NCBI GenBank assembly: GCA_024103215.1
Contig: JAGFIY010000065.1
Span: 1-33,945 of the forward strand
Reading direction: 5' to 3'
Length of the DNA: 33,945 bases
Source of the DNA: Melioribacteraceae bacterium
GTDB lineage: Bacteria > Bacteroidota > Ignavibacteria > Ignavibacteriales > Melioribacteraceae
Below are positions 2,018 to 20,364 of the stretch, in pieces. Within the stretch, counting starts at the first letter, position 1; each line of letters opens with the position of its first letter. The translations under genes were made by a program, and so were the position numbers. The notes under the pieces are model-generated. The model was not told the DNA's origin. It saw only the letters and a program-made list of their open reading frames with translations, and searched no databases.

Positions 2018-2491
2018 ATGAAAAAAATCCTAACACTATCTCTGGTTTTGTTTTTACTGCAAACAGGTTCAATAAATTATTTTGCTCAAGATACTGGTTT
2101 TGGCGCCGGACTTATGCTAGGTGAACCGACGGGATTAAGCGGAAAGTACTGGCTCGATAAAACAAATGCTATCGATTTTGGACTCGGCTTTGCAATTTTT
2201 GAAGATGCCGGCAGAATGACATTTCACGCGGATTATCTTTATCATAATTGGAATTTGGTCGAAACAAATTTTGTGATGCCAATTTATTACGGATTCGGCG
2301 CAAGGTTCAGATTTAGGGAAGGGCGGAGCGGAAGTTTCGGAATACGAGGTGTTCTCGGAGCAACACTTTTCCTAAAGGAAGAACCTGTTGACATATTTTT
2401 TGAAATTGCTCCTGCGTTCAGGCTTTTTCCGAACACGGCTTTGGATTTTGATATTGCCCTCGGCGGACGATATTATTTTGAGATTCATTAA
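2018..2491 (+). CDS. Small outer-membrane-type beta-barrel protein
   Basis: About 157 residues from the ATG at 2018. That start gives a clean signal peptide (MKKILTLSLVLFLLQTG... ending near YFAQD); an upstream in-frame ATG at 1979 would add a basic 13-residue tail and is less likely. The mature part alternates glycine and aromatic residues in strand-like stretches (GFGAGLMLGEPTGLSGKYWL, DFGLGFAIF, YYGFGARFRF) and ends in an aromatic-rich strand (GGRYYFEIH), as in small outer membrane barrels. No specific function is recognisable. The stop codon shares a TTAA with the stop of the convergent crtU-like gene. Confidence 0.72.
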   Translation: MKKILTLSLVLFLLQTGSINYFAQDTGFGAGLMLGEPTGLSGKYWLDKTNAIDFGLGFAIFEDAGRMTFHADYLYHNWNLVETNFVMPIYYGFGARFRFREGRSGSFGIRGVLGATLFLKEEPVDIFFEIAPAFRLFPNTALDFDIALGGRYYFEIH

Positions 2492-4002
2492 GCTAGTATT
2501 CCTTTTAGAGGAACCGAGTAAATTTTTTCCTGTTTAAGACCTTCTTTTTTGAAAATCTCGTTGACGCTGAACAAAGCCGAGGTTGCGGCTGCTTCCATTA
2601 GCATTGCCGGAGACTCAAGCTTTATCCAATCACCGGAAAAGTATAGATTTTCCACCTCGGTTTTAAAAGTCAGTCTATTTGAATTTAATCCTGTGTGAAA
2701 TGCTGTAAAATCATCTCGAAGCTGAAGATGCTCATAAATTATTTGTGCATCTTTCATTTCGGGAAAGAAGTGATAAAATTCTGTTAAAAGATTTTCACTT
2801 ACTTTGCTTACGCTTAAATTTTCATCGGGAACCGCATAAGAATGCAGTTCGTAAATCCCACCGTTGTTTTGTTCCGCCCATCTGCGGGAATCTTCTTCCA
2901 TTTCATGATAGATGGTTATTGAATCAAGCATTTTCAAGGCTTCGGTAAATATGAAAAAAGGATATTTCCCTTTGTGCCTTTTGTTAGTCCAAATTCTTAA
3001 GACAGAATATTTCTGTGATTGCTTTTGTTTCATAACTTTATCAAAAAACAAGGGATAATTTCGCTTAAAATAAGGCGAATTTTGAATTATGTTTTTAGTG
3101 CCTTTTATATCGGAAGAAAGAACGAGATAATCGTAAAGTCCACCGTTTACCACAAACTTCCCGTTTACTTTATCAATCGAGGAAATGTTAATTCCTGTTC
3201 TATAAGAGAATTTTTTCTCTTTTGTAAAATTGAGGAATGGATTTATAAAAGTTTTTTCGAAATCATCGTTTAGAACATCGTAAATAAGTCCGAGATCGTT
3301 GCTTAGAAAATAAAAATGAAAACTCTTCATCAACTCTGCCACAGAAATTAACTGAGGTTCAGCAAAAAATGCCCGAGAGAATGATTCAAAAATCAGCTGC
3401 AATTCTTTAGGCAGCTTTGCTTTTGAAGCAAACTGAAGAAAATTAACGTTATCCCATTTATCAAATGTCTTTACCTGATCGTACTTGACCATATCAAGCA
3501 TTTTGAAAGAAGCAGAACTTTTAAAGAAAGGCGAAAGAGGAAAAAACCCTCGCTTAATCATATCGAAAATATTCAAAATAGGAACGGTTGAGATATCCTT
3601 AAATCTGTAATGCTTGTGATCTTTTGTGATTATAAGATAATCCTCAAGAGGAATTAAATATTTGTGCGCATCAATTTTATGAAGATAATTGCGGAGATTA
3701 TAATACTGTTTAAAAAACCCGTGAAAGCCATGTTCAACATTAGTTATATAACCGTTGCTAAACTCAACTTTCCAACTTCCGATTTTGCCGCCGAGATAAT
3801 TTTCTTTTTCAAAAAGATTAACTTCAAATCCTCGTTCAACAAGATATGCTGAGGATACAAGTCCGGCAATTCCACCGCCGATTACGGCAACTTTAACCTT
3901 TTTGCTTAATTGATTTGGTCTGTTTTCATCGACTCTGCTAATTATTTGCTTATAACCGCCAAGACGATTTTCTATAATGCTATTGAATTTTGACTTCTTC
4001 AT
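2488..4002 (-). CDS. crtU: CrtU-type carotenoid desaturase/methyltransferase (aromatic ring synthase family)
   Basis: 504 residues. An N-terminal FAD Rossmann motif (VIGGGIAGL, around residues 40-48) follows a roughly 35-residue leader and leads into EKENYLGGKIGSW. The diagnostic stretch is EHGFHGFFKQYYNLR (residues 90-104), which matches the CrtU/CruE family; these enzymes desaturate the beta-ring of carotenes and shift a methyl group to give an aromatic phi or chi ring. The C-terminal LYFSGDWIKLESPAMLMEAA is the FAD-dependent desaturase tail, ending YSVPLKGILA. It is the last gene of the carotenoid operon, 29 bp after the Rieske oxygenase gene. Phi versus chi specificity cannot be read from sequence alone. 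An alternative is a CrtU-like desaturase with another carotenoid substrate. Confidence 0.82.
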   Translation of the reverse strand: MKKSKFNSIIENRLGGYKQIISRVDENRPNQLSKKVKVAVIGGGIAGLVSSAYLVERGFEVNLFEKENYLGGKIGSWKVEFSNGYITNVEHGFHGFFKQYYNLRNYLHKIDAHKYLIPLEDYLIITKDHKHYRFKDISTVPILNIFDMIKRGFFPLSPFFKSSASFKMLDMVKYDQVKTFDKWDNVNFLQFASKAKLPKELQLIFESFSRAFFAEPQLISVAELMKSFHFYFLSNDLGLIYDVLNDDFEKTFINPFLNFTKEKKFSYRTGINISSIDKVNGKFVVNGGLYDYLVLSSDIKGTKNIIQNSPYFKRNYPLFFDKVMKQKQSQKYSVLRIWTNKRHKGKYPFFIFTEALKMLDSITIYHEMEEDSRRWAEQNNGGIYELHSYAVPDENLSVSKVSENLLTEFYHFFPEMKDAQIIYEHLQLRDDFTAFHTGLNSNRLTFKTEVENLYFSGDWIKLESPAMLMEAAATSALFSVNEIFKKEGLKQEKIYSVPLKGILA

Positions 4003-4031
4003 TAAAATTCACAATAAATTGATGTAATTAA

Positions 4032-5024
4032 TCACTCGCCTCTCAGTTTGCTTCGCCAGAACTTTCTAAACGCAAGCGAAACCTCGTCGCCTTTCACGCT
4101 TACTTCGTGAATTTCGTCTTTCATTTTGTTGTAGTGTTTCTTTTGAGATACCAGAAACTGAATGTCCTCTTTCACAATCGTATCCGATTTTTTTGCCATA
4201 AACTTTTTAGCGAACAATGGAAACTTTGGAAATATATTCTGCCACAAAGTTATCTGAGTCATGCTTACATGTGAATCATCGACTTGATAAACATGTTCAA
4301 GAATCAAAAGCACTCTTTTATTAAATCGTGTTTCGAGCCGGGAGATATTCGGGAAATAAAATCTGTAATTAACATCGTGATGATCATGGCTGCCGAAGTA
4401 AATTTTTTCTCCGATATTTCCTTTGTTTGATCGTTTGTAAGAACCTTTGATTCCGTCCTCCAGAAAATCAATATGAAATTCAGCCGGAAATTCTTCTATC
4501 TGACCGAGAAGTTGTTTTATTGAATCACGGTGAGTAAAGGCAATATGATAAGGATCAATTAGACTTTCGGCTGTGGATTCAAGATCAGCCTCAAAAATAT
4601 ATTCCTTGTAAGTAAATGGCCAATCTTTCATTTCGGGAATATCTGTCGGCGAATAATTTTCAGCTTCATCGGGATTACCGGCAAAAAGCCAGACCCAATT
4701 GTTGTAGTCTTTAGCAGCATATTTTTTTATGGCAGCTTTAGGTGGAATTTTATTATCGGGTAGCTGCGAAGGGATTAAAACACATTGACCGCTCTTATCG
4801 TATTCCCAGCCGTGATAACCGCACACCGGCCTATCGTTCTTCAAATATCCCAACGAAAGATTCACGTTTCTGTGGCAGCATCTGTCCTCAAGCGCAATTG
4901 GATTGCCTTCCTTATCTCTGAATAAAATGATTTCCTCACTCAAAATTTTGAAGGTTCTCATTTTGTTGTCTAAATCTGAGGAGGGACAGACTAGATACCA
5001 ATTATTTTTTAAAACTTCGCTCAT
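4032..5024 (-). CDS. Rieske non-heme iron oxygenase (alpha subunit), probable carotenoid-modifying
   Basis: 330 residues, starting MSEVLKNNWYLVCPSSDL as in many ring-hydroxylating oxygenases. The Rieske [2Fe-2S] ligands are C49-x-H51 and C68-x2-H71. The mononuclear iron site is ESLIDPYHIAFTH (D157, H160, H165), with D287 in VKEDIQFLVSQ as the likely carboxylate ligand. Both centres look intact, so this should be a functional oxygenase that needs a separate reductase; none is seen nearby. It sits between crtYcd (23-bp overlap) and crtU in an otherwise carotenoid-only stretch, so the substrate is most likely a carotenoid ring or its methyl group (hydroxylation or further oxidation). That substrate is inferred only from position. 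The overlap suggests translational coupling. Confidence 0.85.
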   Translation of the reverse strand: MSEVLKNNWYLVCPSSDLDNKMRTFKILSEEIILFRDKEGNPIALEDRCCHRNVNLSLGYLKNDRPVCGYHGWEYDKSGQCVLIPSQLPDNKIPPKAAIKKYAAKDYNNWVWLFAGNPDEAENYSPTDIPEMKDWPFTYKEYIFEADLESTAESLIDPYHIAFTHRDSIKQLLGQIEEFPAEFHIDFLEDGIKGSYKRSNKGNIGEKIYFGSHDHHDVNYRFYFPNISRLETRFNKRVLLILEHVYQVDDSHVSMTQITLWQNIFPKFPLFAKKFMAKKSDTIVKEDIQFLVSQKKHYNKMKDEIHEVSVKGDEVSLAFRKFWRSKLRGE

Positions 5025-5694
5025 TTTTACCTTTTTCTAATTTTATAAATATCGATGTAGCAATAAACAAAAGGGAAAAGCCGAAGAGGAAATCTTCAAT
5101 AGGAACTGTCAAAATTCTAAAATCCAATTGATAAATTGGATCGTATGTAACCACAGGTCTCCATGTCAAATAACCGTTGAATAATATTGTAAAAACAGTA
5201 ACGAGCAATAAGTAATAATAGAAATTCTTGCTAAGGAATAGTCCGGTTCGCAAAAATTTATCAACCAAAAACATAATGCCCGATGAAAGCATCACCAGAG
5301 CCGTGTATTCTTTGTTTATTGTAAAAAAATAAACAGCAGCGGCAAACAAAGGAATCGGTAGAATATACAAAATCCTTAAATTCTCAATTTCTTTATCGGT
5401 GTTGAATCTGTTAATCATTTCCCAAGTAAACAAACAGGCATAGGGAACAGAAATGAAAAACATAATCTCTTCAAACGGAAGATTTAAAATTCGAAATCCC
5501 AAAGTATAATCGCTGCTGAAAAACCAATGACGACCGGTTACTGCGGCATCCCAAATTAAAAACGGAATAAGAGGAATTGATAAGGATATCAAAGCCGATT
5601 TTGCTTTATCTAAAAAATAGAACCGTTTTATTGATCCAAAAATAACAGGACCAAAAATCACAATTAGATTGAAAAGTAAATATTCGTATTTCAC
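5002..5694 (-). CDS. crtYcd: Lycopene cyclase, fused CrtYc-CrtYd (CarR-like) type
   Basis: 230 residues, mostly hydrophobic with about six to seven membrane spans and two repeats of the lycopene cyclase domain. Each repeat carries the family PxE(E/D) motif: PFEE at residues 73-76 in NLPFEEIMFF and PIED at 198-201 in TVPIEDFLFGF. The WDAAVTGRHWFFS and LTWRPVVTYDP segments occupy equivalent places before each motif. In actinobacteria and myxobacteria the two halves are often separate proteins; here they are one chain. It should convert lycopene to gamma- or beta-carotene in the membrane. The start is GTG at 5694, one base after the crtB stop, and the 3' end overlaps the Rieske gene by 23 bp. 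Product range (one or both ends cyclised) is not decidable from sequence. Confidence 0.9.
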   Translation of the reverse strand: MKYEYLLFNLIVIFGPVIFGSIKRFYFLDKAKSALISLSIPLIPFLIWDAAVTGRHWFFSSDYTLGFRILNLPFEEIMFFISVPYACLFTWEMINRFNTDKEIENLRILYILPIPLFAAAVYFFTINKEYTALVMLSSGIMFLVDKFLRTGLFLSKNFYYYLLLVTVFTILFNGYLTWRPVVTYDPIYQLDFRILTVPIEDFLFGFSLLFIATSIFIKLEKGKNERSFKK

Positions 5695-5695
5695 T

Positions 5696-6547
5696 TTATG
5701 TTAATCTCAGAACTTTTACTTCAATAACAGATTTTAAGAGAAGCACCAATTTTTGAATGTTCGAAACGCGCACACGTCTTTTCATTAATTCTTTGACGTC
5801 CAGCCTTTTAATTTTTTTGAATAATATAAGGTAATACAAATATGCAGAATAAACTCCAATCTTAACTCCGATTGGAAGTTTTCTTATTCCTTTCAGCGCT
5901 TCGGCGAATTCTTCTTCGATTTCGTTTTCAAGTTTTTGTTTGTTAATATTATCTATGAACTCGTTATGATGAACATCCGGCAGATAAATTCTTCCTCTTT
6001 CGCTTAAATCGCTTTTTATATCCCGCAGAAAATTTACCTTTTGAAAAGCGGATCCCAGCATTCTTGCCGGGTGAACCAACTCATCATATCTCTGTTGATT
6101 GCCTCCGGCAAAAACTTTTAAGCACATCAATCCAACAACTTCGGCAGAGCCATGAATATATTCATCATAATCATTTCTTTCATAAGAATTTTCGTAAAGA
6201 TCCATTTCCATACTTTTTAGAAATGATTCAACTAACTTAATATCAATATTATATTCGCGAACAACAGCAGCAAAAGAATTTAAAATCGGATTTGTTGAAA
6301 TACCTTCTTCGATAGCAGCATAAGTATCACGGCTAAAATCATTAAGAAGTTTTTTCTTATCATAACCATAGAACGTATCTACAATTTCGTCCGCAATCCG
6401 TACAAATCCGTAAACCGCATAAATTGGATCTCTGTATTCGGTAGAGAATGCATTTATTCCCCAACCGAACGATGTGCTGTAAGCATGAGTAATATCCTTA
6501 CTCAACTTATAACTTAATTTATTATAATCTTGTAAATTCATTTTCAA
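5696..6547 (-). CDS. crtB: Phytoene synthase
   Basis: 283 residues of squalene/phytoene synthase type. Both aspartate-rich diphosphate-binding motifs are present: RIADEIVD (D53-x3-D57) and NFLRDIKSDLSERGRIYLPD (D176-x3-D180). The AYSTSFGWG segment near residue 22 is typical of the family. It condenses two geranylgeranyl diphosphates to phytoene, the first committed carotenoid step. Either the first Met (6547) or M3 (6541) could initiate; both overlap the end of crtI by about 20-26 bp, so translation is probably coupled. No crtE (GGPP synthase) is seen in the window, so GGPP must come from elsewhere. Confidence 0.95.
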   Translation of the reverse strand: MKMNLQDYNKLSYKLSKDITHAYSTSFGWGINAFSTEYRDPIYAVYGFVRIADEIVDTFYGYDKKKLLNDFSRDTYAAIEEGISTNPILNSFAAVVREYNIDIKLVESFLKSMEMDLYENSYERNDYDEYIHGSAEVVGLMCLKVFAGGNQQRYDELVHPARMLGSAFQKVNFLRDIKSDLSERGRIYLPDVHHNEFIDNINKQKLENEIEEEFAEALKGIRKLPIGVKIGVYSAYLYYLILFKKIKRLDVKELMKRRVRVSNIQKLVLLLKSVIEVKVLRLT

Positions 6548-8000
6548 TCCTTTCAGTTACTAATTTAGAACCGATTACTACCATTGGAAGACCGGTGCCG
6601 GGAGTTGTTGAAGCCCCGACATAGAAAAGGTTTTTAAATTTTTCATCAAAATTTTGTGGACGAAAAGCACCGACTTGATTCAAGTCGTGAGCCAGCCCTA
6701 ACCCCGAACCTTTATAAAGATTAAATTTTTGCTGCCAATCAATAGGTGTGAGCACTGTTTTTGTCAAAGTGTTTGCTTCTAAATCAACCCCGATTCGTGA
6801 TGAAAGATCATTGATGATCTGCGCCGCTAATTCATCTTTATCGCGCCAATCCGTTTTGTATCTTAAGTCCGGAACAGGGCAGAGGATAAATAAATTCTCA
6901 CATCCTTCCGGGGCGCACGTTTTATCGGTTGCCGAAGACATATTTACATAGTAATAAGGTTTTTGCGGAGAAACCGATGAAGTAAAAATTGTATCAGCAT
7001 ATTCTTTAAAGTTGCTTCCTAAGAAGTAATTATGATGAATTAGATTATTTATTTTTCCTTTTACGCCGAGATAAATTGTAAACGGAGAAAGCGTCCAATG
7101 AAGCTTATCCAATCTGGATTCCGAAAACTTTTCTCTTCCCAAAATTTTACCTCTGAACGATGCGGCATCCGAATTTGAAATAAAAATATCTGCTTGATGA
7201 ACGTTCCCTCGACTGTCAATTGCCCCGGTTACATCCTCCCCTTCGTAATTCAATTGAACTATTTCAGAATCAAATACAAATTCTACGTTCCTTGATTTTA
7301 GGATGTTCACTATTTCTTCGGTGATTTTGTACATTCCGCCTTCAACTGCCCAGTAGCCGTCGTTTTCGAGCTCGGTATAATTCAATATTGAATAAATCGA
7401 AGGAGTTTGAAAAGGTGTTGAACCCAAAAAGAATGCGACCAGAGAAAAAATTATTTTCACTTCGTCGGATTGAAAATTTTTATCAAGTTCTTTCCACATC
7501 GATTTGAACAGATAAGGAATATGCTTGAAAGGAACGCCGGTTAGTTTTAACAAATATTCAAGCTTGTTATTAAAATTTGTTTTTATAACCTTATCGTTTG
7601 TATCGTTATAAAATTCTCTTGCTCTTCCCAGATATTTTTGAATCTTTTGCATTAATTCAGGTTCAACAGATTCAAACTCCTTCTGCAGCTCTGCGAGGTT
7701 TTTATATATTTTATAAGGTTCTTGCCTGTTTTCGAAAAACACTTGATAAATAGGTTCGAGCGGCTTAAGCAAGAGGGGATTTTTCACGCCCCCGTCCGAA
7801 AATAACTCATCAAACTCGTAAGACATGCTCATAAACGAGGGACCCAAATCAAATTTGAATCCCTCTTTTTCCATAGTGTTCAATCTTCCACCAGGGGTGG
7901 AGTATTTCTCGATTATCTTAACATCATAACCTCTGTTTGAAAGACGCAGAGCGGTTGCTAAACCGCCCAACCCCGAACCTATTATTATGACTTTTTTCAA
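6522..8000 (-). CDS. crtI: Phytoene desaturase (CrtI family)
   Basis: 492 residues. The N-terminal FAD motif is VIIIGSGLGGLATALRLSNR, followed by EKYSTPGGRLNTMEKEGFKFDLGPSF, which matches CrtI proteins. The C-terminal NLFYVGASTTPGTGLPMVV is the CrtI hallmark (family form GASTHPGTGVPMV). It is expected to desaturate phytoene to lycopene at the membrane using FAD. Its neighbours are the fasciclin gene upstream (28-bp gap) and crtB overlapping downstream. The number of desaturation steps cannot be read directly, but the downstream lycopene cyclase implies lycopene. No second CrtI-type (CrtD or ketolase) copy is present in the window. Confidence 0.94.
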   Translation of the reverse strand: MKKVIIIGSGLGGLATALRLSNRGYDVKIIEKYSTPGGRLNTMEKEGFKFDLGPSFMSMSYEFDELFSDGGVKNPLLLKPLEPIYQVFFENRQEPYKIYKNLAELQKEFESVEPELMQKIQKYLGRAREFYNDTNDKVIKTNFNNKLEYLLKLTGVPFKHIPYLFKSMWKELDKNFQSDEVKIIFSLVAFFLGSTPFQTPSIYSILNYTELENDGYWAVEGGMYKITEEIVNILKSRNVEFVFDSEIVQLNYEGEDVTGAIDSRGNVHQADIFISNSDAASFRGKILGREKFSESRLDKLHWTLSPFTIYLGVKGKINNLIHHNYFLGSNFKEYADTIFTSSVSPQKPYYYVNMSSATDKTCAPEGCENLFILCPVPDLRYKTDWRDKDELAAQIINDLSSRIGVDLEANTLTKTVLTPIDWQQKFNLYKGSGLGLAHDLNQVGAFRPQNFDEKFKNLFYVGASTTPGTGLPMVVIGSKLVTERIENEFTRL

Positions 8001-8028
8001 TTAATACCTCGCAGACAAATAATTTAAT

Positions 8029-8541
8029 TTACTTTTTTTCCGGAATCAGAACAGCATCAATTACATGAATAACACCGTTGGATGATACTACGTCAACAGC
8101 AATTACCTTTGAATCATTTATCATTACGCCGTTATCATCTGCTTTGATTTTCAACAAATCTCCCGAAACAGTAGATGCTTCGGTTAATGTAACTACGTCT
8201 GTTGACATTACTTTACCGGCAACTACATGATATAACAAAATACTCTTTAGTATCTCTGTATCTTTAAGAAGATTCTCGACCGTTCCTTCGGGAAGTTTTG
8301 CAAATGCTTCGTCCGTCGGAGCAAAAACTGTAAAAGGTCCTTCTTTCTGCAGTTCAGCATCTAAGCCTGTAGCCTGCAATGCAGCAGCGAGAGTTGTGAA
8401 ATTACCTGCTTCGACAGCAACTTCAACAATGTTTTTCTTGTTTTTTGTCTTATCATCTCCAGCGAATAGGTCGGATAACCCAAGTGAAAGAACTAAAATT
8501 AAGAAAAACGATACGTTTCTTACTGATTTATATAGTGTCAT
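8029..8541 (-). CDS. Fasciclin (FAS1) domain exported protein
   Basis: 170 residues. A signal peptide (basic start, then FFLILVLSLGLSDLFAG) precedes one FAS1 domain. Diagnostic features are NFTTLAAALQATGL, GPFTVFAPTDEAFAKLP, LLYHVVAGKVMS and the terminal NGVIHVIDAVLIP. FAS1 domains mediate adhesion or surface interactions and act outside the cytoplasm. A strong Shine-Dalgarno (AAAGGAG) precedes the ATG, and the gene overlaps the end of the SRPBCC gene by 14 bp, so it is part of the same transcript. Its presence directly before crtI suggests that an extracytoplasmic protein is made together with the pigment; its exact role is unknown. Confidence 0.9.
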   Translation of the reverse strand: MTLYKSVRNVSFFLILVLSLGLSDLFAGDDKTKNKKNIVEVAVEAGNFTTLAAALQATGLDAELQKEGPFTVFAPTDEAFAKLPEGTVENLLKDTEILKSILLYHVVAGKVMSTDVVTLTEASTVSGDLLKIKADDNGVMINDSKVIAVDVVSSNGVIHVIDAVLIPEKK

Positions 8542-9001
8542 TTTGTACTCCTTTTGTATTGAATAATTGATTTATTTTGTTTTCTCTAAAGTCGAATATT
8601 GATTTCAAATTTTTTCTAACATAGATGTTGTTAATTAGGACCCCGATTGGACCGCCATACAATTTATAGTCAATATTATCGGTGATCTTTGTTTTATCCC
8701 CTTCAGTTTCAAATAAGTGTGTATGATGCCAATATTTATAGGGACCGTTCTTCTGAACATCAACAAACTTATAAGGCGGATCATAATCGGTAATAATCGT
8801 TTTCCACTTCAAAGGAACACTGAAAAGGTTAATTCTATAATCAAACTCTGCGTCTTTTTTCATTATAAGAGGTCTTGGAGTAAGAATCTCAAATTTCATC
8901 CAATCCGGAGTAATTACGCCGAGGTTTTCGGGGTTTTCGAAAAACTCGAAAACCTCATTTAAGTTTGCATCAACAATTTGTTCCATGAAGATGTTAAACA
9001 T
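8528..9001 (-). CDS. SRPBCC-fold (START/polyketide-cyclase-like) ligand-binding protein
   Basis: 157 residues with no signal peptide. The order MFNIFMEQIVDANLNEVFEFF, NPENLGVITPDWMKFEI, FDYRINLFSVPLKWKTIITDYDPP, WHHTHLFETEGDKTKITDNIDYKL matches the SRPBCC superfamily (helix-grip fold with a hydrophobic cavity). Relatives bind or act on hydrophobic ligands; a carotenoid or precursor is a plausible but untested ligand here. It lies 5 bp after the DUF4397 stop and overlaps the fasciclin start, so it is firmly within the operon. M6 is an alternative start. No catalytic residues are obvious. Confidence 0.82.
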   Translation of the reverse strand: MFNIFMEQIVDANLNEVFEFFENPENLGVITPDWMKFEILTPRPLIMKKDAEFDYRINLFSVPLKWKTIITDYDPPYKFVDVQKNGPYKYWHHTHLFETEGDKTKITDNIDYKLYGGPIGVLINNIYVRKNLKSIFDFRENKINQLFNTKGVQNDTI

Positions 9002-9006
9002 TGTTT

Positions 9007-10329
9007 TTATAATCCTAGTACTTCGTTGTTGATAATAATTTGAGCACCTAAAGCTTGATCTCCTGTACCATTGACAAAGCCTTTTGCAAAAACTGTGTAG
9101 ATATCTTGATTTTCAAGCATAACACCAGGGAGTTCAAGTACAACTGTTTCCGTTCCGGCAAGTCTTACCTGAAGATCATATGTTCCTGCATCAAACGGTG
9201 TAAACTCCGAGTAACTCTTGAAGGAAACATTTCCGAACAATACCATTCCGTTCGTCAATGTGATATCGACAGCCGGGGCATCAGGAGACAAGTGAATAAA
9301 TCTTAAATGTGCTTTTCCGCTAGCAGGCATTGCAAGATTATCTTCTAAAATTAAAGGTTCAATGCTGGAAACATTGTTAACTGCAAATACTGAGTAATCT
9401 TTGTAAGCATCGAACAAAATATCACCTTCGATTGCAGTAGTTGATGTTCCAGAAACATTAACTTTTATATTTTGAGTACCAGCATTTATGTTTAAATATC
9501 CTGTGTTGTTCGGAAAAGTCAATCCGGTTCCAACAACAGCATCATTTAGAAGTAGGTCGACTGCCGGGGCATTAGGACTTGCGTGGACTACTTTAACATT
9601 CGCGGTTGCTACTTCAAGATCAACAAATGATATACCCTGATTATTATCAACGTATGTTCTTACGTTAAATGGATAGGAATCATCACCGCTTAGTGTTCCT
9701 TGCGCCATAACCGTGTATATTCTTCCGGACATTAAAGGAGCATTGCCGAGAATCACAACTTCAGCGTTAGATCCCGCAGGTGTTACTGCCAAGTTATATG
9801 TTCCTTCAGGAACTTCGATATAATCTGCGATAGTTTTGAATTCTGCATTTCCGAACAATGTTGATCCCATACCGTTATTAACTTTAATATCGACTGCAGG
9901 AGCATCTGGTGCAGCATGTATAAAACGAACCTTTGCACTGCCGGAACTTATTCTGTCATCTTCTGAAATTATTGCTTCGATTGAAGTAAGATTATTAACC
10001 GCATATATAGTTAGCTCTTGATTTGCAATAATAGTAACTGTTGCAGAAATTACCGGTGTTGTGGTTCCGGCTGCAGAAACAATAATATTCTTTTCACCCT
10101 CTTCCAGTTCAGCGTAACCTGAACTTTCGCCGTAGCTTAAATTGCTGATTACCTGTGCATCATTTACCCATACATCCACGGCGGGCGCATCATAACTAGC
10201 ATGAATAACTCTCACTTGAGCTTTACCCAATTCACGGACTGGTGTATTTATTGTATCGTTATCATCAGCACAGCTGATAAAAAATGCTGCACTTAGAAAA
10301 ACAAGAATAAATTTTCTTAGTAGTTTCAT
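9007..10329 (-). CDS. DUF4397 repeat lipoprotein, first gene of the carotenoid operon
   Basis: 440 residues. A lipoprotein signal ends at the lipobox FISC (Cys20). Four related repeats follow, each opening with an (I/V)H-(A/L)-S/A-x-(D/N)APAVD core (VIHASYDAPAVD, FIHAAPDAPAVD, VVHASPNAPAVD, FIHLSPDAPAVD). They alternate in type: repeats 1 and 3 share YAVNN/FAVNN and a following EDD/EDN, while 2 and 4 share LFGN...F, EGTYNL/AGTYDL and IYTV(M/F)A. So it is a two-unit DUF4397 module duplicated once. It is probably an envelope protein of beta-sandwich type with unknown ligand. The start lies about 48 nt downstream of the predicted CarH-controlled start site and has an AAAGGA ribosome binding site. 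Confidence 0.88.
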   Translation of the reverse strand: MKLLRKFILVFLSAAFFISCADDNDTINTPVRELGKAQVRVIHASYDAPAVDVWVNDAQVISNLSYGESSGYAELEEGEKNIIVSAAGTTTPVISATVTIIANQELTIYAVNNLTSIEAIISEDDRISSGSAKVRFIHAAPDAPAVDIKVNNGMGSTLFGNAEFKTIADYIEVPEGTYNLAVTPAGSNAEVVILGNAPLMSGRIYTVMAQGTLSGDDSYPFNVRTYVDNNQGISFVDLEVATANVKVVHASPNAPAVDLLLNDAVVGTGLTFPNNTGYLNINAGTQNIKVNVSGTSTTAIEGDILFDAYKDYSVFAVNNVSSIEPLILEDNLAMPASGKAHLRFIHLSPDAPAVDITLTNGMVLFGNVSFKSYSEFTPFDAGTYDLQVRLAGTETVVLELPGVMLENQDIYTVFAKGFVNGTGDQALGAQIIINNEVLGL

Positions 10330-10361
10330 TTTGGATCCTTTCGTATATGTTTTTGAATTTG

Positions 10362-10412
10362 TGTCGAATTAATGTCTAGATCAAATATAGCTTATTGTCT
10401 AATGTTTGTCAA
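10362..10412 (-). promoter_or_regulatory. Predicted CarH-controlled promoter of the carotenoid operon with 11-bp-spaced half-sites
   Basis: On the minus strand TTGACA (10412-10407) is followed after 17 bp by TATATTTG (10389-10382), fitting both a sigma70-type promoter and the Bacteroidota TAnnTTTG form. The half-site TGACA in the -35 recurs as AGACA 11 bp on (10400-10396). A further pair, AGACA (10377-10373) and CGACA (10366-10362), also 11 bp apart, lies around and after the expected start site near 10377. Thermus CarH is known to bind 11-bp direct repeats overlapping a -35 element, so this arrangement suits repression in the dark. Binding is inferred. Confidence 0.72.
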
Positions 10413-10472
10413 GTCTTTTTGGATAATATTTTACCAATCGTCTTAAAACGTCTATTATTATGATCATATTGC

Positions 10473-10503
10473 TTGACAACAACTAGACAATTGCTTACAT
10501 TTG
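10473..10503 (+). promoter_or_regulatory. Predicted carH promoter with 11-bp direct-repeat operator (autoregulation)
   Basis: TTGACA (10473-10478), a 17-bp spacer and TACATTTG (10496-10503) form a promoter directed at carH. TGACA and AGACA are again 11 bp apart (10474-10478 and 10485-10489). CTTGACAA and TAGACAAT are identical in this promoter and in the opposite-strand crt promoter, so the two are mirror-image copies about 60 bp apart. The expected start site falls at or next to the ATG at 10508, which predicts a leaderless mRNA. Autorepression by CarH is the likely consequence. Confidence 0.72.
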
Positions 10504-10507
10504 AAAC

Positions 10508-11440
10508 ATGGAAAATGATTATAAATATCCGATAAAAGCTGTCTCTGAAATAACGGGACTTACCGTTCACGCAATTAGGGCATGGGAAAAAAGGTACAAT
10601 GCCGTTGAACCTGCGCGGACAGATACGAACAGAAGACTTTATTCCTCAAGAGATCTTGAGAAATTAACTCTTTTGAAAAAAGCGACTGAATACGGTCATA
10701 GTATAAGCGGAATAGCGTCACTTTCCGTAGAAGAATTAATGAAGCTTCTCGGAAAGAATCATGCTTTTGATGAAAAAGCCGGTTCGGTGAAACCTCAAAC
10801 AACATCAAACGGTGAGACAAAAATTCAGCGGTTTGTCGAAGCAATGAATAATTACGACGGGAAGAGATTGGAAGAACTTCTCCATCACGCCTCGGTTGAA
10901 TACAGCAGAACCAAACTTTTGGAAAATTTGATCACACCACTAATAATTACAATAGGTGATATGTGGCATAAAGGAGAGATAAGAGTTTCACATGAACATT
11001 TTGCATCTTCAATAATCAGAAAATTTTTGTTGAACCTTCTTGAAACACAAAGCATTCCGGAAACCGCACCTAATATTGTAATATGCACACCAAAAGGACA
11101 GACACATGAATTAGGTGCGCTTGTGGTTGCAAATTTTGCCGCTAACGAGGGATGGAAAGTAACATACCTCGGAGCCGATCTCCCGATGGAAGATGTGGTT
11201 TCGGCAGCCGAGGAAACAAAAAGCCGCGTGATCTGTTTTTCGATTGTCTATCCTTCCGATGATATTTTCTTAATTAAGGAATTTGAAAGACTTGATCATA
11301 TTTGTCCGCCGGATATCACAATAATTGCTGGTGGCGCAAGTGTAGGAGGTTATAAAGAAATTCTGAAAAAGGTAGGCGCTATAATTATTGAAGATAATTC
11401 GGGACTTTCGGATAAGTTCAAATTACTCAGAAAATTCTAA
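10508..11440 (+). CDS. carH: CarH/LitR-type B12-dependent light-sensing MerR repressor
   Basis: 310 residues in three parts. A MerR winged-helix DNA-binding domain (YPIKAVSEITGLTVHAIRAW, then RRLYSSRDL; residues 7-75) is followed by a helical B12-binding cap (about 105-185) and a cobalamin-binding Rossmann domain (about 188-310). The cap carries W153-x9-E163-H164, the Wx9EH motif that senses the adenosyl group in CarH photoreceptors. The lower axial histidine is H200 in GQTHELG; the family form is (E/D)xHxxG, and here the first acidic residue is Gln198. GG275-276 is the expected nucleotide-tail glycine pair. In known CarH proteins AdoCbl-bound tetramers repress carotenoid genes in the dark and light breaks them up. 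It is divergent from the crt operon with matching operators at both promoters. Confidence 0.92.
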   Translation: MENDYKYPIKAVSEITGLTVHAIRAWEKRYNAVEPARTDTNRRLYSSRDLEKLTLLKKATEYGHSISGIASLSVEELMKLLGKNHAFDEKAGSVKPQTTSNGETKIQRFVEAMNNYDGKRLEELLHHASVEYSRTKLLENLITPLIITIGDMWHKGEIRVSHEHFASSIIRKFLLNLLETQSIPETAPNIVICTPKGQTHELGALVVANFAANEGWKVTYLGADLPMEDVVSAAEETKSRVICFSIVYPSDDIFLIKEFERLDHICPPDITIIAGGASVGGYKEILKKVGAIIIEDNSGLSDKFKLLRKF

Positions 11441-12280
11441 TTATAAATTGAGAAGAACAATTGCGGCAATGCCTGTCAGCAGAGCCGCGGTTGAATAAAC
11501 ATTCCAAGTTTCCTTCCAAAAAATTCTTACAACAGTTGCAGTAACAATTATTATAGCCATATTTACAACGGGATAAACATATACGGCGCTGAACTTATCC
11601 AATGCGTTGATAAGGAAATGTGAACTTAATATGTTAGGTATTCCCATAATAATTCCAAGAGCCGCACTTTTCTTATGAAATCTGATTCGTCTTAAGATCA
11701 TCACCATGAATGAAATAACAAAAGCCGAAGTAAATATTGTAAACAGAAAAAATGCTTTTTGCGATGGATGAAAATTTGCTTGAAAAATTTTCATGTAAAA
11801 GTCCGCTAAACCAATACCGAGCAAGACGGCAATTAAGAACAAGAATTTTTTTAATCCATCGACATCTTTGTTGTTTCTTTGTACAGAAAGATAAAACAGA
11901 TATATAGTGATTGCTGTTACAAGAAGTCCAAACGATTGAAATAATGAAGGCAGTTCCAAATAAATTAACATTGAGAGAATAACAGGAACAAAAACAGAAA
12001 GTCTCGAACTTAAAGTTGAAATCGCTCCACCGCTGTAAGTGACGGATTTTGAAAAAGCAAAGATGGAAGCGACAAATAAAACCCCGGCGGACATTCCGAT
12101 TAAAGCTAAATCCATTGAAAAAGGAACCGGCTCCTGCGCATAGAATATCAATCCCAAAACGGATGCGGCAAAATAATTGCCGGTAATAAGCGGCATCGAG
12201 TCCCAGTTTTTTACACTGTTAATTTTTAATATAACTGCAATGCTTGAAGAACATATAATAGTGAGAATTAAATCAATCAT
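11441..12280 (-). CDS. DMT-superfamily (EamA-like) membrane transporter
   Basis: 279 residues, nearly all hydrophobic, with about ten predicted membrane segments in two halves, as in EamA/DMT permeases. Features include an N-terminal ILKINSVKNW segment, a YSGGAISTLSSRLSVFVPVILSM stretch near the fourth span and the terminal AAIVLLNL. The substrate cannot be inferred. It begins 5 bp after the photolyase stop, so the two are probably cotranscribed. Its stop codon abuts the carH stop with no bases between them, leaving no room for a conventional terminator between the convergent genes. Confidence 0.8.
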   Translation of the reverse strand: MIDLILTIICSSSIAVILKINSVKNWDSMPLITGNYFAASVLGLIFYAQEPVPFSMDLALIGMSAGVLFVASIFAFSKSVTYSGGAISTLSSRLSVFVPVILSMLIYLELPSLFQSFGLLVTAITIYLFYLSVQRNNKDVDGLKKFLFLIAVLLGIGLADFYMKIFQANFHPSQKAFFLFTIFTSAFVISFMVMILRRIRFHKKSAALGIIMGIPNILSSHFLINALDKFSAVYVYPVVNMAIIIVTATVVRIFWKETWNVYSTAALLTGIAAIVLLNL

Positions 12281-12285
12281 CGGAA

Positions 12286-13626
12286 TTAATCTTGATCAAA
12301 TTTTTTAATGTATTTCGCAACATCGAACTTGCGTTTGCAGCCGTTGTAATTCATATATCTAATTTTACCGAAAATGGGTCGTTCAGCCCACGCTCTGTCA
12401 TGTACTCCGCCGATTGACCAAGCAATCCCTGTATATCCGTTCGGATCACGACCGTCAAGTTCGTATTTATCGTTAAGCTTAATAGCTGTTTCCATTGCTT
12501 CTTCGGGGGAATTTGACCATTCCAAAATTTTCTTTCCCCAGTACATTCGCATATAACCGTGCATCTTACCCGTTGTTATCATTTCGGTTTGTGCTGCATT
12601 CCACAGATTGTCGTGTGTTTCTGCGTTTTCAAATTGTTTAAAAGAATATAAATATTCTCGCTTATCCGCTCTGTGGTCATACAATGTTTTTTTTGCCCAA
12701 TCATGAAATCCTTCGAAAGAATCGTATTTGTTATTATAGAAACAAAAATTATCTGCAAGCTCTCTTCGAATTATTAACTCTTCGAGAAAAGCTTTTCTGT
12801 TTTCATTATTAATTCCTAAGCGACTTATAACCAAAGCAATCCGCTGAGCGGAGATTTGCCCGAAGTGAAGGAATGGAGAAAGATTTGATAATGCATCATT
12901 ATTGGGATCATTTCTATTTGACGCATACTTTACAATTTTATTGTTGATAAAAGTTTCAAGCATTTTGTGGGCGGACGTCTCCCCCGGCGTTATCCAATCG
13001 ACGACACCAACCGAATAGTTAACTTTTAATGATCTATAAATTTTATCCCAATCACAGCTCGGAAAGTTTTTGGTTTTTTCCATCTTTTCAATTATCGGAA
13101 ATTCATCTAGAAATTCGGGAAGCAGTTTTGTGATTTTAGGACGAATAGTATAAGCAGCAAACTCAAGTTTGTTTGAAGCAGTCCAGACAGGAACTATATT
13201 GTGTGCATCAACTTCATAAAAACTGCATGTTATGTTTTTCTTTATTTCTTCTTTCCAAGTTCTTGTGATTTTTAAAGGATTCATATCAGTAAAAAGGAAG
13301 GCACAATTATTTTTATTAACAAAATCGGAAATACTTTTGCCGGGATCACCTTGAAGAAGGATGAAAGGAATATTGTATTGTGTTAAGTTTTTCTCGACTT
13401 CCTTAAGACCGTTTAGCAAAAAATCATATTGTCTTATTCCTGCCTCAAGAAAATCTGTAACAAGATTAAAAATTACAACAAGGTTATAACCTTTTGAAAT
13501 CGCAAACTTCTGTGCAGCAATTAATGCCCAGTTATCGTTTGTGCGCTGATCTCGCTGCATCCAATAAATTACGGGTCCAACACCTTCAGTGCCGTCTTTT
13601 ATTTTTCTGATTCTTTTTTTATTCAT
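12286..13626 (-). CDS. phrB: Class II CPD photolyase
   Basis: 446 residues. The N-terminus VIYWMQRDQRTNDNWAL is the class II photolyase signature (YWMxRDQRxxDNWAL). Further matches are VDAHNIVPVWTASNKLEFAA, HGYMRMYWGKKILEW, LNDKYELDGRDPNGYTGIAWSIGG and AERPIFGKIRYMNYNGCKRKFDV. It is not of class I or DASH type. The enzyme uses FADH- and blue/near-UV light to reverse cyclobutane pyrimidine dimers. Its position beside the CarH and carotenoid genes fits a light-damage response, but I see no CarH-type half-site pair in the 107 bp upstream, so its regulation may be separate. It is divergent from the S46 peptidase gene and followed by a DMT permease. Confidence 0.94.
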   Translation of the reverse strand: MNKKRIRKIKDGTEGVGPVIYWMQRDQRTNDNWALIAAQKFAISKGYNLVVIFNLVTDFLEAGIRQYDFLLNGLKEVEKNLTQYNIPFILLQGDPGKSISDFVNKNNCAFLFTDMNPLKITRTWKEEIKKNITCSFYEVDAHNIVPVWTASNKLEFAAYTIRPKITKLLPEFLDEFPIIEKMEKTKNFPSCDWDKIYRSLKVNYSVGVVDWITPGETSAHKMLETFINNKIVKYASNRNDPNNDALSNLSPFLHFGQISAQRIALVISRLGINNENRKAFLEELIIRRELADNFCFYNNKYDSFEGFHDWAKKTLYDHRADKREYLYSFKQFENAETHDNLWNAAQTEMITTGKMHGYMRMYWGKKILEWSNSPEEAMETAIKLNDKYELDGRDPNGYTGIAWSIGGVHDRAWAERPIFGKIRYMNYNGCKRKFDVAKYIKKFDQD

Positions 13627-18478: not shown

Positions 18479-19048
18479 TTGATATTAACTTGGAGTATTA
18501 AGAAGTTTCGAAAAAAAAACAGACATAGTTTGAATAGCATAAAAAAATACATTGACGCAATTGATAAGCTGAACGGCTTTACGGGAATGTTTGCCGGATT
18601 TCTAACCATTCTGCTTGTAGTTCTTGTTACTGTTGATGTTGTTAACAGATATTTTCTTGATATAAGCAGTGTTGCCGTTCAAGAACTTGAATGGCATTTG
18701 TTTGCCGCAGCTTTCTTGATCGGCGCGGCATATACTTTAAGAGAGGACAGTCACGTTAGGGTTGATTTGTTTTACTCAAAGTTCAAACCTAAAACACAAG
18801 CTTGGATTAACTTGATTGGTTTCCTTTTGTTCTTTCTTCCTTTTTGTATGATTATAATCATATCTTCCAAAGATTTTGTAATAATGTCTTTTAACATTGC
18901 AGAAAAATCTCCAGATCCCGGCGGGCTTCCCGCAAGATATATTTTAAAATCAGTGCTGCCTCTTTCATTCTTGCTTTTAATTTTTCAAGGAACATCTCTT
19001 TTTCTAAAATCACTTCTGACGATATTAAACAAGGAACAGGAAAATTGA
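18479..19048 (+). CDS. dctQ: TRAP transporter small permease (DctQ)
   Basis: 189 residues from the TTG at 18479; there is no in-frame ATG near the N-terminus, and a second TTG at 18530 (LNSIKKYIDAIDKLNGF) is about equally plausible. It has four hydrophobic spans, the DctQ segment VDVVNRYF, then QELEWHLFAAAFLIGAAYTLREDSHVRVDLFY, which is diagnostic for TRAP small subunits. It forms a membrane complex with DctM for sodium-dependent uptake of organic acids or related solutes. Its stop codon overlaps the possible TTG start of dctM. No substrate-binding protein gene adjoins it. Confidence 0.9.
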   Translation: MILTWSIKKFRKKNRHSLNSIKKYIDAIDKLNGFTGMFAGFLTILLVVLVTVDVVNRYFLDISSVAVQELEWHLFAAAFLIGAAYTLREDSHVRVDLFYSKFKPKTQAWINLIGFLLFFLPFCMIIIISSKDFVIMSFNIAEKSPDPGGLPARYILKSVLPLSFLLLIFQGTSLFLKSLLTILNKEQEN

Positions 19049-19056
19049 TAGACGCG

Positions 19057-20364
19057 ATGCCCTTAATATTTTTTGTTACAGTTTTACTGCTTCTGTTGAT
19101 GGGTTTTCCGGTTGCGTTTACACTCGGCGGCGCTTCTGTGATTTTCGGCGCGGCAACTTTCGGACTTGATTTTTTTAATCTTCTCCCATTAAGAATTTGG
19201 GGAACTATGAACAACTATATTCTTATGGCGGTTCCTCTTTTTATCTTTATGGGTGTTATGTTCGAAAAATCCGGTTTAGCTGAAGAACTGCTCGAAACCA
19301 TGGCTCTATTATTCGGTAAACTGCGAGGGGGTTTGGCAATTTCCGTACTGGTTGTGGGTGCAATGCTCGCTGCTGCGACGGGAATTGTCGGAGCGACGGT
19401 TGTTACAATCGGGGTCCTTAGTCTTCCAACTATGCTGAAAAAAGGCTACTCTCCCGAAGTTGCATCTGGAATTATTTCTGCTTCCGGTACTTTAGGGCAA
19501 ATAATCCCTCCTAGCATAGTGCTTGTTTTGTTGGGAAGTATTTTAAACATTTCAGTCGGCGATCTTTTTATGGCGGCGGTTATTCCCGGTATTATTCTTG
19601 TTCTGCTTTATCTTCTCTGGCTGATTTTCTTGGCGGTAACAAAACCAGAATCCACTCCGGCGATGCCTAAAGAAGAGTTGAGAGATTTTGTTGGAGCAGA
19701 AAAATTCAAGCGAGTTATAAACGCGTTTTTAATTCCTTTTATTCTAATCCTTGCAGTGCTTGGATCTATTTTTGCGGGAATCGCTTCCCCGACAGAAGCG
19801 GCTGCAATCGGCGCGATGGGCGCAACTGTTTTAACGATGTTCCGGAAAAAGTTTAATCTTGCGACATTAAAAGAAGTTGCACTAAGAACAACAAGTTTAA
19901 CGAGTATGGCATTCCTGATACTGGTTGGAGCATCCGCATTCGGACTTGTTTTCAGAGGGATGCATGGCGACCGCTATCTTATTGAACTTATAACTTCCGG
20001 CGGCATCGAAGCACATCATTTTCTCATAATTGTTATGGTAATAATTTTTATCGCCGGATTTTTTATTGATTTTATTGAAATTACATTTATTATAGTTCCG
20101 GTTGTCGCGCCTATATTTGTACAGTTAAATTTGGATTTACTTTGGATCGGAATTTTGATCGCAATTAATTTGCAGACATCCTTCCTTACTCCGCCATTCG
20201 GGTTTTCGCTTTTCTACTTAAAAGGTGTTGCCCCGCCTGAAGTAACCACAAAACATATTTACCGGGGAATAATCCCCTACGTTGCTATTCAACTTTTAGT
20301 TTTGTTAATTATAATTATATTTCCTGATATTGCTTTATATCTTCCCAAATTAATTACAGGCTAA
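19057..20364 (+). CDS. dctM: TRAP transporter large permease (DctM)
   Basis: About 435 residues from the ATG at 19057; a TTG at 19045 overlapping the dctQ stop is an alternative. About 12 membrane segments with DctM signatures: GFPVAFTLGGASVIFG near the start, VPLFIFMGVMFEKSGLAEELLE, ATGIVGATVVTIGVLSLP, SGTLGQIIPPSIVLVLLG and the C-terminal NLQTSFLTPPFGFSLFYLKG. It provides the sodium-coupled translocation path. The substrate is unknown because no DctP is present. The TAA stop runs into the Shine-Dalgarno of the ATP-grasp gene. Confidence 0.94.
   Translation: MPLIFFVTVLLLLLMGFPVAFTLGGASVIFGAATFGLDFFNLLPLRIWGTMNNYILMAVPLFIFMGVMFEKSGLAEELLETMALLFGKLRGGLAISVLVVGAMLAAATGIVGATVVTIGVLSLPTMLKKGYSPEVASGIISASGTLGQIIPPSIVLVLLGSILNISVGDLFMAAVIPGIILVLLYLLWLIFLAVTKPESTPAMPKEELRDFVGAEKFKRVINAFLIPFILILAVLGSIFAGIASPTEAAAIGAMGATVLTMFRKKFNLATLKEVALRTTSLTSMAFLILVGASAFGLVFRGMHGDRYLIELITSGGIEAHHFLIIVMVIIFIAGFFIDFIEITFIIVPVVAPIFVQLNLDLLWIGILIAINLQTSFLTPPFGFSLFYLKGVAPPEVTTKHIYRGIIPYVAIQLLVLLIIIIFPDIALYLPKLITG

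What the first reader, a model, noticed from the sequence alone, without database searches (positions are those of the whole stretch)
2488..13626. Light-controlled aromatic-carotenoid and photorepair locus under a B12 photoreceptor
An eight-gene minus-strand operon (DUF4397, SRPBCC, FAS1, crtI, crtB, crtYcd, Rieske oxygenase, crtU) faces a CarH-type regulator with the complete Wx9EH adenosylcobalamin-sensing motif, and a class II photolyase lies beyond it. CarH control of carotenogenesis is known in Myxococcus and Thermus; this gene set, with envelope proteins first and an oxygenase plus CrtU last, is not one I recognise.
Basis: partly seen in the sequence, partly recalled or inferred. Interest (0 to 1): 0.78.

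Follow-up and report, generated by a model that had tools for sequence, protein, structure and literature searches.

The report
Light-switched aromatic carotenoid gene cluster
A bacterium that appears not to be photosynthetic carries pigment genes, probably switched on by light through a vitamin-B12-based sensor, that look able to make a hydroxylated aromatic carotenoid of a kind used as a chemical fossil of photosynthetic sulfur bacteria.

Summary
In detail: an eight-gene minus-strand operon (DUF4397, SRPBCC, FAS1, crtI, crtB, crtYcd, Rieske oxygenase, crtU-like) faces a CarH-type regulator; a class II photolyase lies beyond. CarH control gains strong DNA support: both divergent promoters carry paired 11-bp repeats (TnnACA) containing the -35, as in published CarH operators; 11 of 14 related carH upstream regions have such pairs, against 9 of 908 control tiles. 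None precedes the photolyase, so 'photorepair under CarH' is unsupported. The gene set is not unique: the Rieske gene belongs to a clade found beside a distinct CrtU clade in Ignavibacteriota and Bacteroidota (20 of 23 loci found by CrtU; the other three end at the gene). Streptomyces crtU clusters carry another Rieske oxygenase, CrtV, proposed in print to hydroxylate isorenieratene. Best reading: CarH-AdoCbl represses in the dark, light derepresses, and CrtU plus the Rieske enzyme make a hydroxylated aromatic carotenoid. Main rival: the Rieske protein is CrtU's electron partner, since green-sulfur, purple-sulfur and cyanobacterial CrtU carry an inserted Rieske domain. New variant of a known kind; no activity, light response or pigment is shown.

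The parts
10508..11440 (+). carH: MerR-type repressor with B12-binding domains (Wx9EH at residues 153-164; His ligand in QTHELG; RAWEKRY in the DNA-reading helix)
10473..10490 (+). Predicted operator at the carH promoter: two 11-bp direct repeats TTGACAACAAC-TAGACAA; the first half-site is the -35
   Evidence: exact pattern found only here and at 10395-10412 in the 3.2-Mb genome
10496..10503 (+). -10/-7 element TACATTTG of the carH promoter, 17 bp after TTGACA and 4 bp before the ATG (possible leaderless mRNA)
   Evidence: sequence; inference
10395..10412 (-). Predicted operator at the operon promoter: TTGACAAACAT-TAGACAA, containing the -35
10382..10389 (-). -10/-7 element TATATTTG of the operon promoter, 17 bp after TTGACA
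   Evidence: sequence; inference
10362..10378 (-). Second repeat pair TAGACATTAAT-TCGACA just downstream of the operon promoter
9007..10329 (-). DUF4397 protein with four DUF4397 stretches and a lipobox-like N-terminus (FISC, by eye)
8528..9001 (-). SRPBCC/START-like protein (PF03364, just under cut-off)
8029..8541 (-). FAS1 (fasciclin) protein with a signal-peptide-like N-terminus (by eye)
6522..8000 (-). crtI phytoene desaturase family
5696..6547 (-). crtB phytoene synthase (SQS_PSY family)
5002..5694 (-). crtYcd lycopene cyclase, both domains in one protein
4032..5024 (-). Rieske oxygenase with complete [2Fe-2S] motif (C49xH51..C68xxH71) and mononuclear iron motif D157xxH160x4H165; proposed aromatic-ring hydroxylase
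2488..4002 (-). crtU-like beta-ring desaturase/methyl-shift enzyme, no inserted Rieske domain

Best explanation
The locus is a CarH-repressed carotenoid operon of an Ignavibacteriota-type bacterium. In the dark, AdoCbl-bound CarH sits on paired 11-bp repeats that contain the -35 hexamers of both divergent promoters, shutting off the operon and itself. Light breaks the Co-C bond, CarH lets go, and the operon and carH are transcribed. CrtB, CrtI and CrtYcd make a carotene with beta-rings, the CrtU-like enzyme turns the ring(s) aromatic, and the neighbouring Rieske oxygenase hydroxylates the aromatic ring, as proposed for CrtV of Streptomyces. The methyltransferase that relatives carry between the two genes is missing here, so the predicted product is a free phenol (3-hydroxy- or 3,3'-dihydroxy-isorenieratene type, or a one-ring analogue). 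DUF4397, FAS1 and SRPBCC proteins probably serve the envelope or pigment handling. Shown by sequence: gene content, motifs, repeats at the promoters, the conserved Rieske-CrtU pairing. Inferred: every biochemical and regulatory step, the product, and the light response.
For: CarH: aligned over residues 6-305 of 310 to T. thermophilus CarH (E 6e-31 to 8e-31), Wx9EH and the B12 motif from the His onward. Operator: published CarH sites are tandem 11-bp repeats nnnnTnnACAn overlapping -35 or -10 (PMC9304148, passages); here both promoters carry a pair, and in 14 relatives TNNACA pairs number 25 at spacing 11 and 0-2 at each other spacing from 7 to 19. AdoCbl supply: PF01923 adenosyltransferase. 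CrtU: branch between CrtU family and FAD-enzyme outgroup 100/100; model closest to phytoene desaturase 5mog, in the CrtP/CrtQ/CrtU kin group (PMC2889829, passages). Rieske: both motifs complete in the window protein and in two Streptomyces CrtV-position proteins; profile match to CrtV spanning both motifs, E 2e-7; pairing with CrtU; CrtV/CrtT proposed as hydroxylase and methyltransferase of isorenieratene (PMC5993118, section 12); the G002 methyltransferase is nearer to the CrtT-position protein (33%, 6e-40) than to the own-genome UbiE-like protein (28%, 9e-14).
Against: No expression, binding or pigment data exist. The window CrtU is only about 27-33% identical to the other CrtU types. The Rieske tree does not unite the window clade with CrtV; ten other Rieske oxygenases lie nearer (91/87), though those were picked by similarity to the window protein. 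The pairing is stricter than expected for an optional tailoring step. The B12 motif has Gln instead of Asp/Glu. Each promoter has only two full repeats, while three and four are described for T. thermophilus and B. megaterium CarH. With two mismatches allowed, the repeat pattern is not enriched genome-wide (64 matches, 167 for the reversed control). Four Bacteroidota CarH loci beside crt genes show no such repeats in 400 bp upstream. No crtE lies in the operon.
Confidence: 0.5

Rival explanations
1. The Rieske protein is the redox partner of CrtU rather than a tailoring hydroxylase: it takes the electrons that CrtU strips from the beta-ring, so the pair together make the aromatic ring.
For: CrtU of green sulfur bacteria (20 of 20 loci fetched, of 77 genomes with a match), a purple sulfur bacterium and a cyanobacterium carries an inserted Rieske motif (Pfam domain in the three proteins scanned); in Thiodictyon and Calothrix it scores as cytochrome b6f-like (2 of the 3 scanned), i.e. 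an electron carrier. CrtU without the insert had a separate Rieske gene in 14 of 14 plasmid records and in 20 of the 20 Bacteroidota loci with DNA upstream.
Against: PMC5993118 (section 12) states that crtV and crtT are dispensable for isorenieratene in S. griseus. The window protein keeps the mononuclear iron site of oxygenases, which a pure carrier would not need.
Confidence: 0.22
2. The CrtU-like enzyme of this clade does not make an aromatic ring; with the Rieske protein it makes another oxidised beta-ring end group.
For: About 27-33% identity to the other CrtU types, a separate clade (78/99, under the tree's own mark for firm support), and no biochemically studied member known to me (recalled).
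Against: It falls with CrtU against the outgroup (100/100) and shares near-invariant CrtU columns that the outgroup lacks. Gene context (cyclase, Rieske, CrtT-like methyltransferase in relatives) mirrors the Streptomyces clusters.
Confidence: 0.15
3. CarH here controls the photolyase too.
For: In one relative (L063) carH and a class II photolyase lie in one co-directional run, and L061/L062 have one about 8 kb away.
Against: No TNNACA pair at 11-bp spacing upstream of phr2; the exact repeat pattern occurs only at the two carH-side promoters in the genome.
Confidence: 0.1
4. CarH senses AdoCbl level rather than light, or is a B12-blind relative.
For: Gln two residues before the His ligand; among 12 relatives whose loop was read, 10 have Gln, one Phe and one Glu. 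One relative (L070) of 14 lacks Wx9EH.
Against: Wx9EH with His after Trp, the lower His ligand and the spaced SxV...GG are intact.
Confidence: 0.1

Closest known systems
CarH-controlled carotenogenesis of Myxococcales, Thermus and B. megaterium (PMC9304148, passages)
   Same: MerR-type B12 regulator with Wx9EH; tandem 11-bp repeats TnnACA over the -35; operators at two divergent promoters, as in some myxobacteria
   Different: Two full repeats per promoter, Gln in the B12 motif, a crtYcd-Rieske-crtU gene set, DUF4397/SRPBCC/FAS1 genes at the head of the operon
Isorenieratene cluster crtEIBV/crtYTU of Streptomyces (PMC5993118, section 12)
   Same: crtB, crtI, a cyclase, crtU and a Rieske oxygenase together; relatives of the window also have a CrtT-like methyltransferase
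   Different: The Rieske protein is not of the DUF5914 type, the cyclase is CrtYcd, one operon beside CarH, no methyltransferase in the window
CrtU/CruE of green sulfur bacteria, Thiodictyon and cyanobacteria
   Same: Same CrtU family, Rieske centre associated
   Different: Rieske is a domain inserted in CrtU (after window residue ~282), b6f-like in 2 of 3 scanned; the hosts are phototrophs (FMO protein in 4 of 4 green-sulfur genomes tested; puf genes beside it in Thiodictyon)
Light-induced carotenoid cluster of Chryseobacterium lacus (PMC7064467, passages)
   Same: Bacteroidota, crtB-crtI-CarR-domain cyclase, light-induced
   Different: crtZ instead of Rieske-crtU; the paper only speculates that a hypothetical gene acts like CarA/LitR

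Membership tests
CarH/LitR B12 photoreceptors | MerR DNA-binding domain with RxWE[R/K]RY helix plus cobalamin-binding domains | tested here: met
   (published helix motif is RxWERRY; here RAWEKRY)
CarH/LitR B12 photoreceptors | Wx9EH motif contacting the adenosyl group | tested here: met
   residues 153-164; found in 13 of 14 relatives examined
CarH/LitR B12 photoreceptors | Classic D/ExHx2G-x41-SxT/V-x22-27-GG motif | tested here: inconclusive
   His, spacing, SxV and GG met; Asp/Glu replaced by Gln, as in 10 of the 12 relatives whose loop was read
CarH/LitR B12 photoreceptors | Operator of 11-bp direct repeats overlapping the promoter | tested here: met
   repeats only, no binding assay; two full repeats per promoter
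CarH/LitR B12 photoreceptors | AdoCbl-dependent dark binding lost in light | not testable with these tools
   needs protein
CrtU carotenoid ring desaturase | Sequence falls inside the CrtU family | tested here: met
   100/100 against the FAD-enzyme outgroup, own subclade 78/99; CrtP/CrtQ sequences were not in the tree
CrtU carotenoid ring desaturase | Forms aromatic phi or chi rings | not testable with these tools
   pigment analysis needed
CrtV-type Rieske oxygenase (Rieske + DUF5914) | DUF5914 C-terminal domain | tested here: not met
   window protein has VanA_C, no DUF5914; two Streptomyces proteins have DUF5914. It may work like CrtV but is not filed as a CrtV
Rieske non-haem iron oxygenases | CxH..CxxH plus D-x2-H-x4-H iron site in the oxygenase fold | tested here: met

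The most novel reading that the evidence does not exclude
Non-phototrophic Ignavibacteriota and Bacteroidota make phenolic aromatic carotenoids through a CrtU subfamily obligately paired with a Rieske oxygenase recruited independently of Streptomyces CrtV, in this lineage switched by light through B12. They would be an unrecognised source of isorenieratene-type biomarkers.
Probability: 0.42. Interest if true: 0.66.

Novelty: new variant of a known kind. Interest (0 to 1): 0.5.

Why it matters
Aromatic carotenoids are read as chemical fossils of phototrophic sulfur bacteria; PMC9342728 (passages) already warns that non-phototrophs may make them. A light-switched, widespread CrtU-Rieske module in Ignavibacteriota and Bacteroidota without the green-sulfur light-harvesting protein would extend that warning within the phylum that (in the taxonomy used here) contains the green sulfur bacteria. 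It also gives a testable question about CrtU chemistry: whether the Rieske centre that accompanies CrtU in each lineage examined here is an electron acceptor or a separate hydroxylase. The operator prediction makes the CarH part directly testable by gel shift.

Tried and rejected
Looked for other CarH sites in the genome with a strict pattern drawn from the two promoters: only these two places match exactly. The single one-mismatch site (L039) lies at the start of a reading frame without the promoter arrangement, rejected. At two mismatches the pattern gives no signal (64 matches in all, 167 for the reversed control). Looked for CarH-type repeats before phr2: none. Looked for TNNACA pairs at spacing 11 within 400 bp before carH in four Bacteroidota crt clusters (L087, L089, L092, L093): none, so the operator reading does not extend to them. 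Considered a saxitoxin-type enzyme because SxtT/GxtA are the best PDB matches of the Rieske protein: rejected, 24-26% identity and only the general fold. First favoured the electron-partner idea for the Rieske protein; lowered it after PMC5993118 reported CrtV dispensable. Sought the CrtT-like methyltransferase elsewhere in the genome: best match 27%, UbiE-like. Rfam found nothing in the window at its curated scores.

Limits: papers with both 'Rieske' and 'CrtU': one, an unrelated co-mention; with 'isorenieratene' and 'Rieske': three, of which only PMC5993118 was opened, and it names the genes crtaU/crtaV, so the first search missed it; with 'CarH' and 'Ignavibacteri': none. Only open-licence PMC papers are held. 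The half-site TNKACA was chosen after seeing the sequences; (15 regions with the window: 22 pairs at spacing 11, two at 15, none at the other spacings from 7 to 19, 12 of 15 regions; shuffles mean 0.06, at most 2) used it. One search repeats the test with the published TNNACA and the window left out. Whole-genome protein searches scored only the best few candidates of each genome (three; four).
Full report
What is there. The eight reading frames of the minus-strand operon, the divergent carH, the EamA gene and the class II photolyase are all present at the stated coordinates and match the families named, with the SRPBCC protein just under the Pfam cut-off. The genome (G000, 3.2 Mb, 186 contigs, 99.88% complete) is unnamed. 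Its nearest named kin by the Rieske protein are titled Ignavibacterium, Ignavibacteriae or Ignavibacteriaceae, with one titled only 'bacterium BMS3Abin03'. It shows no match to the green-sulfur light-harvesting protein FMO, which 4 of 4 tested genomes of family f24 have; other signs of phototrophy were not searched.

The regulator. The window protein aligns over residues 6-305 with T. thermophilus CarH and has RAWEKRY, Wx9EH and the B12 motif, except for Gln in place of Asp/Glu two residues before the His. The search of 58 genomes including the own one gave 14 near-full-length carH-like loci in 13 other genomes; 13 of these 14 keep Wx9EH. The genome encodes a cobalamin adenosyltransferase (PF01923).

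The operator. PMC9304148 (passages) describes CarH sites as tandem 11-bp repeats nnnnTnnACAn overlapping -35 or -10. In the window, TNKACA pairs at spacings 7-19 number three, all at spacing 11, all in the carH/operon intergenic region, two of them containing the TTGACA of each promoter; with TNNACA there are 14 pairs at spacings 7-19, of which the three at spacing 11 are these same ones. The strict pattern occurs exactly twice in the genome, at these two places; since it was drawn from them, that shows locality, not significance. The independent test is the relatives: with the window left out and the published half-site, 14 carH upstream regions hold 25 pairs at spacing 11 and 0-2 at each other spacing; 11 of 14 regions have one, against 9 of 908 control tiles from the same loci. 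The three without are L061, L062 and L068; the start of L068 was uncertain. Four Bacteroidota CarH loci beside crt genes show none.

The operon elsewhere. G025 has carH with DUF4397-FAS1 and no crtB, crtI or crtYcd in the 12 kb fetched, only a weak 26% match to CrtU at the contig edge. Rieske (E at most 1e-40) occurs in 2 of 79 family genomes, G000 and G002, and (E at most 1e-60) in 1 of 296 phylum genomes drawn, G000; I did not see G002 among the genomes listed in that draw. CrtU of this type (E at most 1e-60) occurs in 2 of 395, G000 and G002.

The Rieske-CrtU pair. A Rieske-based scan kept 80 loci of 213 relatives. The 27 strongest (L073-L099) hold a CrtU-like gene in 25; L073 has a run of N inside the methyltransferase gene that follows Rieske and no CrtU match elsewhere in its genome, and the L098 contig ends within the Rieske gene (no CrtU match in its genome either). 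In 22 the two genes are adjacent or their open frames overlap; in L074-L076 a methyltransferase lies between. Of the 53 weaker loci, 16 were examined (L100-L115) and none shows CrtU in the DNA held. That search is biased, so I repeated it from CrtU: 23 of 348 genomes of the order of G460 (L094, titled Chitinophagales) had it, with Rieske directly upstream in 20; the other three loci (L200, L203, L204) end at or inside the CrtU gene, which I read as contig ends. On plasmids CrtU occurs in 16 of 72,556 records. Fourteen are actinobacterial and are the same 14 accessions that hold the DUF5914 Rieske protein, within about 120 bp of crtU in 13 and about 6 kb away in one, by the coordinates. The other two, Thiodictyon and Calothrix, have the Rieske motif inside CrtU. 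Thiodictyon CrtU found homologues (E at most 1e-50) in 77 of 395 phylum genomes, all family f24; all 20 fetched carry the inserted motif.

Families. The CrtU tree (28 rows) gives four groups: window plus Ignavibacteriota/Bacteroidota (78/99, not firm by the tool's mark), Rieske-insert type (98/99), Streptomyces (100/99), outgroup (100/100), with warnings on long branches and letter make-up, the window row included. The outgroup is FAD enzymes from other carH loci; CrtP/CrtQ were not included. The Rieske tree gives the window clade 95/98 and puts CrtV apart; the 12 other oxygenases were picked by similarity to the window protein and only two CrtV proteins were used, so independent recruitment is likely but not proven. 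A profile comparison still links the window clade and CrtV over both metal-site motifs (E 2e-7). AlphaFold models (pLDDT 86.6 and 83.2) match Rieske oxygenases (best E-values SxtT/GxtA, TM about 0.75-0.79; dicamba monooxygenase up to 0.84) and rice phytoene desaturase (TM up to 0.77/0.82).

What it does. PMC5993118 (section 12) reports that the S. argillaceus cluster expressed in S. albus gives 3-hydroxy- and 3,3'-dihydroxyleprotene and proposed methylated derivatives, suggests the CrtV Rieske oxygenase and CrtT methyltransferase as candidate enzymes, and cites Kruegel 1999 (not read) for both being dispensable for isorenieratene in S. griseus. By analogy the window Rieske protein is best read as an aromatic-ring hydroxylase, and the window genome, in which no close match to the methyltransferase was found (best 27%), would stop at the phenol. 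The electron-partner rival stays open because of the inserted Rieske domains and the strictness of the pairing.

Photolyase. phr2 and EamA form a separate minus-strand unit 5 bp apart; no repeat pair precedes them. CarH and phr2 are close in some relatives (L061-L063), so co-control elsewhere is possible.

Assessment. The regulator part is a well-supported new member of a known kind. The pathway part is a new variant with an unproven product. All functional steps are inference.

Noticed in passing
L155, L157-L176, L180: CrtU of green sulfur bacteria, Thiodictyon and Calothrix contains a Rieske motif inserted in the flavin-enzyme fold, cytochrome b6f-like by NCBIfam in two of the three scanned. 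Its role in CrtU chemistry is not discussed in the section on CruE/CrtU that I read (PMC10604819 section 12).
   Followed up: partly
L177 4419-5432, L179 4438-5454: The gene in the crtV position of Streptomyces crt clusters, listed as 'putative methylesterase' for S. coelicolor in PMC8539372 (passage), is a Rieske protein with DUF5914 and an oxygenase iron motif; PMC5993118 already calls it a Rieske oxygenase.
   Followed up: yes
window 10496-10508; carH starts of L057 and L058: carH promoters have Bacteroidota-like TAnnTTTG elements (TAnnTTTA in L058) ending only a few bases before the ATG, so carH mRNA may be leaderless. The promoter type is recalled.
   Followed up: no
L060, L063, L069: Other carH genes of the group lie beside another gene set: in L063 ECF sigma, DUF1365, FAD amine-oxidase-like protein, DUF1295 (families scanned only in L063; L060 and L069 share the FAD protein).
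   Followed up: no
L057 12614-13255; L087, L089, L092, L093: An ECF sigma factor sits inside the G002 operon, and beside CarH in four Bacteroidota crt loci, but not in the window operon.
   Followed up: no
L058 2066-3301: In G025 the carH-side repeats face DUF4397-FAS1 without crtB, crtI or crtYcd nearby, so these envelope genes may be the core CarH target in this family.
   Followed up: partly
window 18479-20364: TRAP transporter DctQ-DctM pair; no DctP-like protein among the 20 window proteins scanned with Pfam.
   Followed up: no
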